Source of the DNA: Myxococcales bacterium
GTDB lineage: Bacteria > Myxococcota > UBA727 > VGSZ01
Assembly (NCBI GenBank): GCA_023248635.1
Contig: JAHFED010000055.1
Location: 1-42,990, forward strand
Direction of reading: 5' to 3'
DNA length: 42,990 nucleotides
Part shown: positions 24,928-42,990 of the stretch, piece after piece
Layout of the letters: every line of letters starts with the position of its first letter
Numbering within the stretch: the stretch's first letter is position 1
Notes under the pieces: model-generated
Database searches by the model: none
What the model was told of the DNA's origin: nothing
The model's input: only the letters and a program-made list of their open reading frames with translations
Position numbers and translations under genes: made by a program

Positions 24928-27900
24928 TCAGCCTTTTTCGCTGGGTCCCCGAGCGAGGGAGGGGATGGAAGGGCGCTCGACCATCAGCGTCTTTTGGCCC
25001 TCGTAGGCGTCGCCGCCCATCGTGGCCGGGGCCGGGGCGTGCACCGCGACGGTGGGCGGATCGAAGGCCCCCTCGGACGAGAGCCCATCTTGGGGCGCGG
25101 GTCGGGGTGGGTTGACGGCGTGGGGAACCAGGGAGGCAGCCCCGACGGCCGGCACGGCGCGGGGGGCGGCGGCCACCGGCGGGAAGGTCGCGACCTTGGT
25201 CTGGGCCAGCCGCTGGGCCGCCATTTTCTTGATCTGATCGGCCTCGGCCTTGGACTGCTGGGCCTGGGCCACAGCATCGCGCTGCGCTTTTCGGGCCTCC
25301 AGCAGCTCGCGGCCGAGGCGGGTGAGCTCTGCTTGTTGGGCCTCGAGCGCTGAGGCCTTGTTGGCTTCGGCCTGGCCCTTCGCGGCTTCCAGCTCGAGGT
25401 CGGCGTCTTGTTTCTGCTTGAGGACCAGCTGGTTCTGCAAGACGGCGCGCTGCAGTTGCGCCCGCACATCGCTGAGCTGCTTGGCCTGGAGCTCGGCGTC
25501 GGCCCGCGCCTGGTGGGCTTGTTGGGCTCCTGCCTGGGCACGAACCTCGTTCATCTCTGCCCGCAGCTTTTCGACGTCGCCGAGGGCGAGCTTCTTTTCG
25601 CCGTCGATCTTCTCGACGATGGCCTTCAGGGTTTTGTTGTCGCCGACGATCTTCTCGGCCTGTGCCCGGAGCTTTTGGTACTCGGCCCGAACATGGGCTT
25701 CGCTCCTGTGCACCTCGGTGAGGCGTGCTTCGGCAGCGCGGGCGCCGGCGAGCTCGGCCTCTTTCGCCGCCAAGAGCTCCGAGACGCGGCGCCACTCGAC
25801 GCGAGCGTCCTCGGTCTTTTTGCGCTCATTGACGAGGGCTTCGCTGGTCGACGACGACGTCGTTGAGAGCTGCTGGTCTTTTTGCGCCAGGCTGGCCTGC
25901 AATTTCTCACGCTCGGCGGTGGCTTGGGCGAGTTGCTGCTCGAGCGTTCCGGAGCGGGCACCCAGGTTGATGGCCTGCTTTTTTTCGGCGTCGAGGGCCA
26001 GTTTGAGCTCGGCGATGCTCTGGTCGCGGGTCGCCAACCACTTCGCGCGCTCGTCGATGGAGCGGCGGGCGTCGTCGAGGGCCGCGCGCACATCGCTGAG
26101 CTCTTGTTCGCGCTCGCCCAGGAGAGCTTGTTGCTGGGAGCTCTGCTGCTCGGCCCGGTTGAGCACCTGACCTTGGGCCGAGATGCGACCCTCGCGATCA
26201 GCGACGACGCCTTCGAGCTGCCGGGCCCGCCCCTGCAATTCTTCGATGTGAGTGGCGGCGTCAGAGAGGCTCGCCGACAGGGAGCCGTTTTCGGTGAGCT
26301 GCTGCGAGAGCTGCTCCTCGAGCTCGCGCTTTTCTCCTTCGAGCTCGAGGGTCTGCTGCTCGAGACTCACGCGCGTCTGCTGCAGGGTGGCGCTGACCTG
26401 ATCGCGTGCCCGTTCGACGTCGGCGTAGGCCCGGGCTCGATCGCTGAGCTCGTTGCTGCGCTGGGCGAGGGCCTCTTTGGCAGCGGCGAGGTCCTTGCGG
26501 ATCTGGTCGGTGCGCTGGCCCGCGGCCTCGAGCTCGCCGAGCGAAGCCCGCAGTTTGGCGTCGGAGTCTTCGAGCGTGCGTCGAAGCTCGTTGTTGCGCG
26601 CCTCGGCGGATCCGAGCTGGCTTTGCAGCTGCTCAGCAACGGCGCTCCCGGCGTTGATCTCCGCCCGCGCGTTTTGCAGCTCCGCGGTGAGATTGCTGGC
26701 CCGACGCTCGGATTCGAAGAGCTCGGTGCTGCGGGCCTGGACTTCGACGCGACTCTGCTGCGTCTCTTCTCTCGACGACGCCAACTGCTTCTGCAGCTCG
26801 GCCAGGTGCGCATCTTGGCGATCGAGCTGGGCCTTGTGATCGAGCACCGACGACTGCGACTTCTTGAGCTCGCCCTCGACCAGCTCGAGCCGCCCATCGC
26901 GCTGGTTCAGCTTTTCGCTGATGACCGCGATGCGCTCGTCGCGGGCGATGATGGTGGACTCACGTTCGGAGTTGCTGGCATCGAGTCGGAAGATCTGCGC
27001 CTCGAGCTGCACCTGCTTCTCGTCGGCCTGACGCACGCGGTTCAACAGCTCGGTGATGCGCTCGTCGCGCGTCGACATGGTCCGGCGCAGGTTGCCGATG
27101 TCTTCTTTGGCGTCCCCGAGGTGGCGCTCGAGGTCGGCGACGCGCTGGCTGCGGTCGGCGATCTCGTTGTCCTTGCGCTCGACGATGTTCTGGACTTCGA
27201 GCTCGCGCTGTTGCCGGTTGTGCTTCTCGTGGGAGAGATCGTCGCGCGTCGTCGACAAATGCTGCTCGGTGGCCTGCAGCTTGTCGGTCAACCGCGCGCA
27301 CTCGCCGGTCATGCCCTCGAGACCGTTTTGCAGCCGCGTCTCCGTCGCCGCTGCCCGCTCACGGGTATGGGCGAGATCGCGCTCCAGCTCGTCGGCGCGG
27401 GCGTTTTCGGAGGCGTGATCCATCTCGGACTGGCCGAGTCGCGAGGTCAGGTCTTCGACGCTGGTCTGAAGGCGCGTGCGATCTTCGCTGAGCTCGGTGA
27501 GCTTGTGATCGCGCACGCGAATCTGCTCGCGGGCGACGAGCGACTTCCGATCGTCGAGGGCAAAGAGAGTCGCCGCGACGCTCTCGCCCAAGGCGTTGGC
27601 CTGGGACAGTGCGCCCTCGAGCTCCACCGTGCGGCGCCGGTAGATCTCGCGTTCGTCGCGCAGGCGAATTCGCTCGCTCTCGCCCTCACGCACGACCTGC
27701 GCGAGGCGGGCGATGTGCTTGCGGTGCTCGCCGGCGAACCATCCCAGCAGCTTCTGGTGCCTGCGCAGATCTTCTTCGACGACGACGATCGCGGCGCGGA
27801 GCTCGTACAGCTCATCTTGCACCAACCGGCGTTTCCGTTGTTCTTGCGCCAAGGCGGACTGGACGACGGCGACGGCGCGTTCTTGGCCCAGGGCGGCTTC

Positions 27901-41898: not shown

Positions 41899-42990
41899 AT
41901 GGCCGAGACGAGCAAACCCAACGCGGGCGAGAAGGTCCTCCGCATCGGCGTCATCCAGGGCGTGCGCGTCATTGAAGAGCGCATCCTCCGCAAGAAGGGG
42001 CCCATCACTTTCGGCACCGCCGACGGCAACACCTTCGTGCTCGCCGCCTCGGATCTCCCCCGCTCGATCACGGTGTTCGAGGCCAAGTCCGAGGGCTACG
42101 AGCTGGTGCTCGACGACGACATGCAGGGACGACTCGAGGGTCCCGACGGCAAGAAGGAATTCACTGGCCTGCGGGCGTCGGCGGCGAAGAAGGACGGCGT
42201 TTTTCGTCTGCCCTTGGCCGACACGAGCAAGGGCCGGGTGCGGCTGAGCGCGGAGATCACGGTCCTGTTTCATTTTGTCGTCGCTCCCGTGGTGGCCGCC
42301 GCTCCCGACATGCCGGCCGAAGCGCGCGGTGGCCTGCTGAAGTCCGTCGAGCCCGTGTTCATGGCGGTTTTGACGGCGTCGTTTCTGGTGCACTTCGCCT
42401 TCGGCATTTTCATCAAGGTGACGGCCCCCCCGGCGCCGCCGACCCTCGATGACCTGCGCGAACTGGTCGAGCGCATCCAGCCCCCCAAGGTCGAGGTCAA
42501 GCTCCCGCCCCCCAAGCCGGTGGACACCGGCACGACGACGACGGCGCCGGCCACCGACGAAGGCAAGGGCAAACCCGCGAGCGCTGGCGAAGGCGACGGC
42601 GAAAAGACGGCGGGCAAGGGCAAGGGCAAAGGCAGCGGCGGCATCGGCGATCGGGCCGCGATCCGCGAGGGCATCGCGGGCAAGGGCATCCTGCAGCTCA
42701 TCGGTGGACGCGGGGGCGGCGACGGCGGCGGCGGCATCGGCAGCGTCTTTGGATCGGGCGCTGGCATCTCTGACGATATCGGCGGAGCCCTGGCTGGCAC
42801 GGCAGGTGTCGGCATCGCCGGCGCAGGCGAAGGTGGCGGCGTCACCCGGCGCGGCACCGGCGGCGGCGGCGGCGGCGGCGAGGGCGGCGAAGGCGGCGGC
42901 GCCGTCGGCATCGGCGAGCTCAAGACCGAAGGTGGCGGCAAGGTCGACACCGGCGCCAAGACCGCCGCACGCGTCGTCGCGCGCGTTCAG
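41899..42990 (+). CDS. gltG: GltG-like FHA/TonB-type gliding protein (partial, runs off right edge)
   Basis: The frame opens at an ATG after a strong GGGGAAGAGG site and is still open at the last base (364 residues). Residues ~12-125 form a cytoplasmic beta domain resembling a divergent FHA (VLRIGVIQGVRVIEERILRK; FGTADGNTFVLAASDLPRS), followed by one membrane helix (EPVFMAVLTASFLVHFAFGI, ~151-170). Then come a Pro/Lys region (PPKVEVKLPPPKPVDTG), typical of TonB-like proteins, and long Gly-rich periplasmic stretches. M. xanthus GltG and GltJ share this layout and end in TonB C-terminal domains; the first cytoplasmic segment fits GltG better. The TonB end, if present, lies beyond the window. 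Confidence 0.78.
   Translation, partial: MAETSKPNAGEKVLRIGVIQGVRVIEERILRKKGPITFGTADGNTFVLAASDLPRSITVFEAKSEGYELVLDDDMQGRLEGPDGKKEFTGLRASAAKKDGVFRLPLADTSKGRVRLSAEITVLFHFVVAPVVAAAPDMPAEARGGLLKSVEPVFMAVLTASFLVHFAFGIFIKVTAPPAPPTLDDLRELVERIQPPKVEVKLPPPKPVDTGTTTTAPATDEGKGKPASAGEGDGEKTAGKGKGKGSGGIGDRAAIREGIAGKGILQLIGGRGGGDGGGGIGSVFGSGAGISDDIGGALAGTAGVGIAGAGEGGGVTRRGTGGGGGGGEGGEGGGAVGIGELKTEGGGKVDTGAKTAARVVARVQ

What the first reader, a model, noticed from the sequence alone, without database searches (positions are those of the whole stretch)
24928..42990. Polarity switch, adaptor, motor and chassis of gliding motility in one locus
An AglZ-like gene faces away from mglBA, and mglBA runs straight into glt-like TPR genes, AglR, two ExbD-type subunits and a GltG-like gene. 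In M. xanthus, from memory, mglBA, aglZ, aglRQS and the glt genes are in separate places. A compact locus with several 4-base overlaps suggests an ancestral or transferred module whose parts are made in fixed ratio, and it strengthens the functional links between them. Outer-membrane Glt proteins (GltA, GltB, GltH) are not in the window.
Basis: partly seen in the sequence, partly recalled or inferred. Interest (0 to 1): 0.85.

Follow-up and report, generated by a model that had tools for sequence, protein, structure and literature searches.

The report
Polarity-switch-linked envelope motor, not gliding motor
This stretch of an uncultured myxobacterium's genome carries, in one place, a cell-polarity switch and a proton-driven envelope machine that looks like a cousin of the gliding motor rather than the gliding motor itself, and it suggests which orphan motor and orphan scaffold of Myxococcus belong together.

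Summary
In detail: an AglZ/FrzS-like coiled-coil gene, mglB, mglA, then GltC-, GltD-, GltE- and GltF-like genes, an ExbB, two ExbD-type genes and a GltG-like gene, with three 4-base overlaps. The interpretation needs correcting. Trees put the chassis with Myxococcus cluster G4 and the motor with M2, not with gliding clusters G1/M1; this genome has G1-type Glt genes and an AglRQS-type motor on other contigs. In M. xanthus, G4 and M2 mutants move normally (Luciano 2011). The mglBA-G4 arrangement is widespread: 35 of 55 mglA-centred regions sampled across the phylum have it, Myxococcus included. What looks new is the pairing: M2 motors nest inside the mgl-linked motor clade, and p282 (G4) and M2 are both present or both absent in 105 of 116 genomes; 16 of the 17 lacking both keep MglA. 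One ExbD subunit has lost the proton-carrying Asp, a different one in different lineages. Two reduced-genome relatives keep chassis and motor without a detected MglA. The AglZ link was seen only in the window's genus. Best reading: a separate, probably non-gliding, MglA-linked envelope machine of unknown cargo.

The parts
24928..29115 (-). AglZ/FrzS-like protein, 1395 aa: decayed receiver domain followed by a long coiled coil
   Evidence: Best solved relative of aa 1-125 is the FrzS receiver, E 7e-4; 30% identity over residues 1-352 to a Myxococcus ORF at 3.52 Mb taken as aglZ by position; seen near mglBA only in the window's genus
29440..29916 (+). mglB (Roadblock/LC7 GAP of MglA)
   Evidence: Pfam Robl_LC7 2.4e-16; NCBIfam MglB model 86.8 bits, below its cut-off of 200
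30006..30647 (+). mglA (Ras-like GTPase)
   Evidence: Solved MglA (6h17), E 1.2e-109
30661..30720 (.). dispersed palindromic repeat between mglA and p282
   Evidence: 12 matches in the window against 1.05 expected
30909..31757 (+). p282: hydrophobic N-terminal stretch, Pro/Ala-rich linker, helix plus beta-sandwich; marker gene of the G4 locus
   Evidence: 18-row alignment; AlphaFold of the C-terminal domain, mean pLDDT 83; domain found at E <= 1e-6 in 97 of 116 phylum genomes
31754..34180 (+). GltC-like TPR protein, 808 aa (G4 type)
   Evidence: NCBIfam GltC 32 bits, cut-off 450; conserved neighbour
34177..37734 (+). GltD-like TPR protein, 1185 aa (G4 type)
   Evidence: GltD trees, G4 clade 100*
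37731..39227 (+). GltE-like TPR protein, probably a lipoprotein, 498 aa (G4 type)
   Evidence: NCBIfam GltE 55 bits, cut-off 225; conserved neighbour
39351..39587 (+).
   Evidence: tblastn hits in the regions of all ten relatives; HMM hits after gltE in most phylum regions that reach that far; the name GltF rests on place and size
39699..40352 (+). ExbB-type motor subunit, M2 type
   Evidence: Trees; Pfam MotA_ExbB 2e-24
40410..40455 (.). second in-locus copy of the palindromic repeat, between exbB and exbD1
40545..41099 (+). ExbD-type subunit 1, Asn at the ion-carrying Asp position
41101..41799 (+). ExbD-type subunit 2, keeps the Asp
41899..42990 (+). GltG-like transducer, cut by the contig end: FHA-like domain, TM, linker, Gly-rich stretch
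   Evidence: NCBIfam GltG 51 bits, cut-off 650; FHA-like model, pLDDT 87; two longer relatives end in the AgmX/PglI tail

Best explanation
The locus is the single-locus form of an Agl-Glt-type envelope machine that in Myxococcus survives as two orphans: chassis G4, still behind mglBA, and motor M2, more than 1 Mb away. It is a paralogue of the gliding machine (G1/G2 plus AglRQS), whose G1- and M1-type genes this genome carries separately. Shown here: orthology of chassis and motor, co-occurrence of G4 and M2, and linkage to mglBA. Inferred: an ExbB/ExbD1/ExbD2 motor in the inner membrane uses the proton gradient through the one Asp-bearing ExbD subunit, pulls or rotates the GltG-like protein, and that force is passed through the periplasmic p282 and GltC/D/E/F-like proteins to cargo at the outer membrane, while MglA-GTP and its GAP MglB set where in the cell the machine assembles. 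The cargo is unknown; gliding is unlikely to be the main output.
For: GltD trees: G4-type rows form one clade (100*), with G1, G3/nfs and G5 elsewhere; the genome has one full-length member of each of the four types, on C120 (G1), C9 (G3-like), C94 (G4) and C75 (G5). Motor tree: mgl-linked motors plus Myxococcaceae M2 form one clade (99/98), M2 nested inside (99/99); AglRQS-type triads, including this genome's C130, are a separate clade (ExbB-only tree, M1 clade 96/83). p282 and M2-type ExbB across 116 genomes: 88 both, 17 neither, 11 other; by genus 47/2/2/12. Linked within 15 kb in 23 of 55 genomes checked, in 15 families. Of the 17 genomes with neither, 16 keep MglA; in G043 a GltD remnant with a stop follows mglA. 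Literature: no motility defect of G4 or M2 mutants; an MXAN_3004 deletion still sporulates and MXAN_3003 gave no two-hybrid signal with GltG or NfsG.
Against: No experiment links MglA to this machine. In 20 of 55 mglA-centred regions the cluster does not follow mglA within what was fetched; 32 of 80 p282 loci have at least 1.5 kb upstream and no MglA; in reduced-genome relatives G008 and G009 the cluster persists with no MglA at E <= 1e-40. So MglA is not needed for it. The in-locus palindromes may break the operon. G025 has an M2-type motor without a p282 hit; G011 has the chassis without a recognised motor; G008, G019 and G056 have intermediate motor scores. The GltD trees used the quick method without bootstrap, and warns of long branches meeting outside the clades used here.
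Confidence: 0.8

Rival explanations
1. One reading: this is the gliding machine itself, with polarity switch, adaptor, motor and chassis in one locus.
For: Same gene kinds as the known Agl-Glt core; the motor is in the Agl superfamily, not TolQ/ExbB; MglA is a clear orthologue.
Against: Chassis and motor fall in the G4 and M2 clades; far below the GltC/GltE/GltG model cut-offs; G1-type and AglRQS-type genes lie on C120 and C130; G4 and M2 mutants of M. xanthus move normally.
Confidence: 0.07
2. The machine is real and is G4 plus M2, but MglA/MglB do not control it; the adjacency is shared expression or an old neighbourhood kept for other reasons.
For: 32 of 80 p282 loci have at least 1.5 kb upstream and no MglA, and clusters of families f11, f12 and f16 lie on other contigs than mglA; cluster kept without a detected MglA in G008 and G009; MglA kept in 16 of 17 genomes with neither p282 nor M2; a 261-bp gap with a terminator-like palindrome after mglA.
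Against: The adjacency is seen in 35 of 55 mglA-centred regions over a whole phylum, also in Myxococcaceae where the motor lies elsewhere.
Confidence: 0.4
3. G4 and M2 co-occur only because large-genome myxobacteria keep everything; there is no dedicated pairing.
For: Some of the 17 genomes lacking both are small, 0.5 to 2.7 Mb (G010, G040, G093, G120).
Against: G076 (9.5 Mb), G105 (12.3 Mb) and G049 (6.9 Mb) lack both; G008 and G009 (1.3 and 1.8 Mb) keep both linked, with diverged sequences; physical linkage in 15 families.
Confidence: 0.06

Closest known systems
Myxococcus xanthus cluster G4 (around MXAN_1922) with mglBA (MXAN_1926/1925)
   Same: Same order mglB-mglA-p282-gltC-gltD-gltE in M. 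xanthus AM003 (L283), continuing gltF-gltG in genome G050 (L102), which is 91% identical to L283 over 14 kb; one GltD clade
   Different: In G050 no motor genes were found between gltF and gltG; the window has exbB-exbD-exbD there
M. xanthus motor M2 (MXAN_3003-3005)
   Same: M2-type triads of G050 and G064 are in one clade with mgl-linked motors
   Different: Unlinked to the chassis in G050 (1.2 Mb apart); both Asp residues kept, whereas the window's ExbD1 has Asn
Agl-Glt gliding machine (G1, G2, M1)
   Same: Paralogous architecture: ExbB/ExbD/ExbD motor, GltG-like transducer, TPR chassis
   Different: Separate clades, below the gliding model cut-offs, and G1- and M1-type genes are encoded elsewhere in this genome
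Single-locus core complexes (Group B genes) of Gammaproteobacteria and Geobacter (Luciano 2011)
   Same: gltC, D, E, G and aglR, Q, S in one region
   Different: The text read here mentions no mglBA or p282 with them; their sequences were not compared here

Membership tests
Agl-Glt gliding machine (G1/G2/M1) | Chassis proteins orthologous to gliding GltC, GltE and GltG (NCBIfam equivalog cut-offs) | tested here: not met
   32, 55 and 51 bits against cut-offs 450, 225, 650; the window's GltG is truncated, but the longer relative L027 scores 113
Agl-Glt gliding machine (G1/G2/M1) | Motor in the AglRQS (M1) clade | tested here: not met
   Groups with M2, apart from M1
Agl-Glt gliding machine (G1/G2/M1) | GltA, GltB, GltH, GltI, GltJ, GltK and CglB present | not tested
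   Not searched in the window or genome; the contig ends inside gltG
Agl-Glt gliding machine (G1/G2/M1) | Required for gliding | not testable with these tools
   Literature on M. xanthus orthologues: no motility effect (PMC3169522, section 13)
G4 chassis | GltD in the clade of MXAN_1922-type sequences | tested here: met
   One clade, 100*, using genome G050, whose four full GltD sites match the four published loci in relative order and whose mgl region is 91% identical to M. xanthus AM003
G4 chassis | Adjacent to mglBA with p282 first | tested here: met
M2 motor | ExbB/ExbD/ExbD triad in the clade of MXAN_3003-3005-type sequences | tested here: met
   99/98 with M2 nested inside at 99/99; ExbB alone 100/100. 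M2 in G050 and G064 was recognised by map position and score, not by locus tag
TolQR/ExbBD | ExbB groups with TolQ/ExbB | tested here: not met
   Separated at 100/98; TolQ anchor L001 scores 233 bits, cut-off 221
AglZ | Orthologous to AglZ rather than FrzS | tested here: inconclusive
   Decayed receiver plus long coiled coil; aligns over residues 1-352 with the presumed Myxococcus AglZ; no AglZ/FrzS tree built

The most novel reading that the evidence does not exclude
The G4-M2 machine is the original effector of the MglA/MglB switch in Myxococcota: an MglA-positioned, single-Asp proton motor conveying an envelope cargo, from whose paralogues gliding and spore-coat machines were later built, and so useful that reduced-genome relatives keep it as their only machine of this kind.
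Probability: 0.25. Interest if true: 0.8.

Novelty: new variant of a known kind. Interest (0 to 1): 0.6.

Why it matters
G4 and M2 were reported as gene sets of unknown function in M. xanthus, the latter tested as a sporulation motor and rejected. Seeing them as one locus, with close co-occurrence, gives each orphan a partner and makes their function testable by one double set of deletions and one two-hybrid pair. It also supplies MglA, a well-studied polarity switch, with a physically linked candidate machine other than gliding and pili. The loss of the Asp in one or the other of two ExbD subunits is a natural experiment on how heterodimeric ExbD motors use protons.

Tried and rejected
Rejected: gliding machine in one locus (see rival 1); Tol/Ton motor. 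Horizontal transfer of a compact module is not favoured by the phylum-wide spread, but was not tested formally. AglZ as a fixed part of the module: in G003 and G005 its orthologue is on another contig than mglBA, in G050 and G064 it is more than 1 Mb away, and in G002 it lies about 4 kb upstream in the opposite orientation to the window's. Fold of p282: helix plus beta-sandwich; best VIA-align Z 8.5 and weak Foldseek matches to varied beta-sandwiches such as transthyretin (several of the VIA rows are domains of pore-forming toxins; a shared sandwich says nothing on function), so no family is claimed. GltG N-terminus: FHA-like fold, but no Foldseek match at E <= 0.001 and no Pfam hit. Upstream neighbours of mglB: clusters of ORFs printed, one protein recognised by eye as DnaX. 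Papers: no statement of an mglBA-G4 link or of a G4-M2 pairing was found with the searches (listings; passages or sections of PMC3169522, PMC3858216, PMC3983030, PMC4316618, PMC4546325, PMC10196010 and PMC12204202 were seen, none in full); figures and supplements are not held, and Luciano Figures 1B, 7 and S1 and Wartel Figure S9 may show part of it.

The 2x2 table was typed from the printed rows, with thresholds of mine: M2 present at 260 bits or more, intermediate 230-259, p282 weak below 100 bits. One search lists rows only down to about 200 bits; absences were read from its per-genome table. Fisher values (1.7e-17 over genomes, 2.9e-9 over 63 genera; weak and intermediate rows counted as absent) treat rows as independent, which they are not. 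One search also uses typed coordinates, for 55 genomes that I chose; different contigs counted as unlinked, which fragmented assemblies may inflate. Of the 20 mglA-centred regions without p282, two reach less than 6 kb downstream (L081, L129).
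Full report
What is there. The window is the whole of contig C94 (42,990 bases) of a 6.53 Mb, 135-contig genome. From 24,928 on it holds an AglZ/FrzS-like gene on the minus strand, then on the plus strand mglB, mglA, p282, GltC-, GltD-, GltE- and GltF-like genes, exbB, two exbD-type genes and a gltG-like gene cut by the contig end. Three 4-base overlaps are present. MglA matches solved MglA (6h17) at E 1.2e-109 (that 6h17 is the M. xanthus protein is recalled).

Naming the chassis. 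Genome G050 (8.97 Mb, one contig, unnamed) is a Myxococcus close to M. xanthus: its mgl region is 91% identical over 14 kb to that of M. xanthus AM003. It has four full GltD sites at 6.01, 3.96, 2.33 and 1.57 Mb, in the same order as the published loci MXAN_4870 (G1), 3374 (G3, nfsD), 1922 (G4) and 1327 (G5) (Luciano 2011, PMC3169522: sections 6, 7, 11, 12, 13 and passages read). Its 6.01-Mb cluster passes the NCBIfam GltE and GltG cut-offs (744 and 1094 bits), so it is G1; its 2.33-Mb copy lies behind mglBA. In a tree of 38 GltD sequences all 18 mgl- or p282-linked rows, the window's included, form one clade (100*); G1, G3/nfs and G5 types are elsewhere, and this genome has one sequence in each: C120, C9 and C75. 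A second tree of 44 rows, one long row (L024) left out and seven added, gives the same grouping. The C120 cluster scores 495 bits for GltC (cut-off 450), 217 for GltE (225) and 500 for GltG (650), against 32, 55 and 51 for the window's proteins; only the C120 GltC passes its cut-off. The window's TPR genes are therefore G4-type, and the likely gliding chassis of this genome is on C120.

Naming the motor. The concatenated ExbB/ExbD/ExbD tree (28 rows) puts the 17 mgl-linked motors and the two Myxococcaceae M2 motors in one clade (99/98), M2 nested within (99/99); M1/AglRQS-type triads, with this genome's C130 triad, form another (100/100). M1 and M2 in G050 and G064 were told apart by map position and score, not by locus tags. 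The tool warns of long branches meeting elsewhere in that tree, but the ExbB-only tree of 44 rows repeats both clades (100/100 and 96/83) and separates the whole Agl group from TolQ/ExbB at 100/98 (TolQ anchored by L001, 233 bits against 221).

How general it is. MglA was found in 112 of 116 phylum genomes (E <= 1e-40). I fetched 60 regions by mglA position, mostly one per genus, from those 112 (one was a stretch without mglA). Of these, 55 have at least 2 kb downstream of mglA, and 35 of the 55 have p282 within 6 kb on the same strand. With the window and five regions that had been fetched around gltD, and so favour linkage, it is 41 of 61. Among all regions that reach gltF and gltG or the motor, 8, the window included, carry exbB after gltF and 23 carry gltF-gltG without it (the split regions are not in that count). 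A scan of named genomes with p282 returned 250 relatives, 80 kept; 41 of the 80 have MglA upstream on the same strand, 7 are cut within 1.5 kb upstream, and 32, several of them labelled Sandaracinaceae or Polyangiaceae, have no MglA there. Myxococcus xanthus AM003 (L283) has mglB-mglA-p282-gltC-gltD-gltE.

Pairing of G4 and M2. ExbB scores with an M2/mgl-type model fall into two groups in 116 genomes: 260 bits or more (M2 type) and mostly below 230 (M1 type where checked), with the best hits of three genomes between 230 and 259. Against p282 in the same genomes: 88 both, 17 neither, 4 weak p282 and no M2 (G011, G058, G060, G096), 2 M2 without p282 (G001, whose contig begins inside gltD; G025), 2 p282 with intermediate M2 (G019, G056), 1 p282 without M2 (G033, p282 near a contig end), 1 weak/intermediate (G008), 1 weak/yes (G009); by genus 47/2/2/12. 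Of the 17 genomes with neither, 16 keep MglA, the exception being G010. In G043 a GltD remnant with an internal stop lies just behind mglA and no p282 or M2-type motor is found; in G058, G060 and G096 a weak p282 hit lies just behind mglA by coordinates. p282 and M2 are within 15 kb in 23 of 55 genomes checked, in 15 families; in eleven single-contig or near-complete genomes of family f13 (taken to be Myxococcaceae) where both lie on one contig they are 1.2 to 4 Mb apart. With the nested position of M2 this reads as a motor that left the locus, though the trees are unrooted.

Against a simple MglA story. In the same order, family f5 has genomes of 0.3 to 1.8 Mb. G009 and G008 keep p282-(gltC)-gltD-gltF-exbB-exbD-exbD-gltG, within the G4 clade (100* with the window's order); gltC was not recognised in G008 and gltE in neither; G011 keeps p282-gltC-gltD-gltF without a recognised motor. 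No MglA was found in G008 to G011 at E <= 1e-40 (0 of 4), and the GltD hits of G008, G009 and G011 each lie at this one place. In G021, G022 and G028 (families f11, f12, f16) chassis and motor lie together on another contig than the best mglA. So the machine does not need MglA, and a role in basic envelope upkeep is as open as a polarity-controlled one.

Motor chemistry. At the ion-carrying Asp of the ExbD transmembrane helix (position known from ExbD/TolR; recalled), the window has Asn in ExbD1 and Asp in ExbD2. By genome, among loci where both subunits were recognised, ExbD1 lacks Asp in G000-G007, G016, G035, G038, G041 and G055; ExbD2 lacks it in G027, G036, G039, G042, G045 and G046; both have it in the Myxococcaceae M2 motors looked at, G018, G020 and G032; none lacks both. 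One search adds Asn/Asp in G008, G009 and G022, and Asp/Asp in G017, G019, G021, G025, G028 and G056. The six M1-type triads looked at all keep both. This suggests that one Asp per heterodimer is enough; it does not by itself show function.

GltG and p282. The GltG-like protein has an FHA-like N-terminal fold (pLDDT 87) though Pfam sees no FHA, a likely transmembrane helix, a Pro/Glu-rich linker and a Gly-rich stretch, and in two longer relatives the AgmX/PglI tail (85 and 91 bits, cut-off 40). This is the build of a force transducer. p282 is a secreted-looking protein with a helix plus beta-sandwich domain.

AglZ. AglZ and FrzS are paralogues with decayed receivers; AglZ is MXAN_2991 (PMC4546325, passages). 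The window protein has a decayed receiver by eye and a long coiled coil. Its orthologue sits near mglBA in G002 but in the other orientation, and on other contigs in G003 and G005. In two Myxococcaceae the presumed aglZ lies 18-19 kb from M2, which may be an echo of linkage or chance.

Literature. G4, G5 and M2 have no known function there, and G4 and M2 mutants move normally. MXAN_3003-5 is described as the only additional complete Agl set; an MXAN_3004 deletion still sporulates, and MXAN_3003 gave no two-hybrid signal with NfsG or GltG (PMC3858216, passages). A survey of MglA neighbourhoods says that those of Groups 1, 4 and 5 vary widely (PMC4316618, passages); which group M. xanthus MglA belongs to was not read. 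I found no text stating the mglBA-G4 link or the G4-M2 pairing; figures were not available.

Verdict. The identity and the pairing rest on results here; force transfer, cargo and control by MglA are inference.

Noticed in passing
window 2183-2274, 30661-30720, 40410-40455: A dispersed palindromic repeat (TTCAAGACGC and its complement) occurs at three places, two of them inside this locus between genes; 12 matches to the pattern against 1.05 expected.
   Followed up: partly
G022 contig C9, 46399-48852 (within L416): An 869-aa open frame beside p282 holds several p282-like domains in a row (p282 model 426 bits over the ORF).
   Followed up: no
L033 551-3385 (G006): The GltC-like reading frame of G006 also contains a second, weaker p282-like stretch.
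   Followed up: no
G000 contig C24 (L004), G003 C9 (L207), G005 C10 (L203): A third Agl-type ExbB/ExbD/ExbD triad forms its own clade; it might belong to the G5-type chassis on C75, untested.
   Followed up: no
L301 (record BNCN01000011.1): A record titled Comamonas sp. KCTC 72670 carries an mglBA-G4 locus like that of Myxococcus and is probably mislabelled or contaminated.
   Followed up: no
L414 (G019 C27): Motor triad and chassis are neighbours but converge tail to tail, perhaps an intermediate between the linked and the separated state.
   Followed up: no
G050 3.523 and 3.542 Mb; G064 8.263 and 8.244 Mb: Presumed aglZ lies 18-19 kb from the M2 motor in two Myxococcaceae.
   Followed up: no
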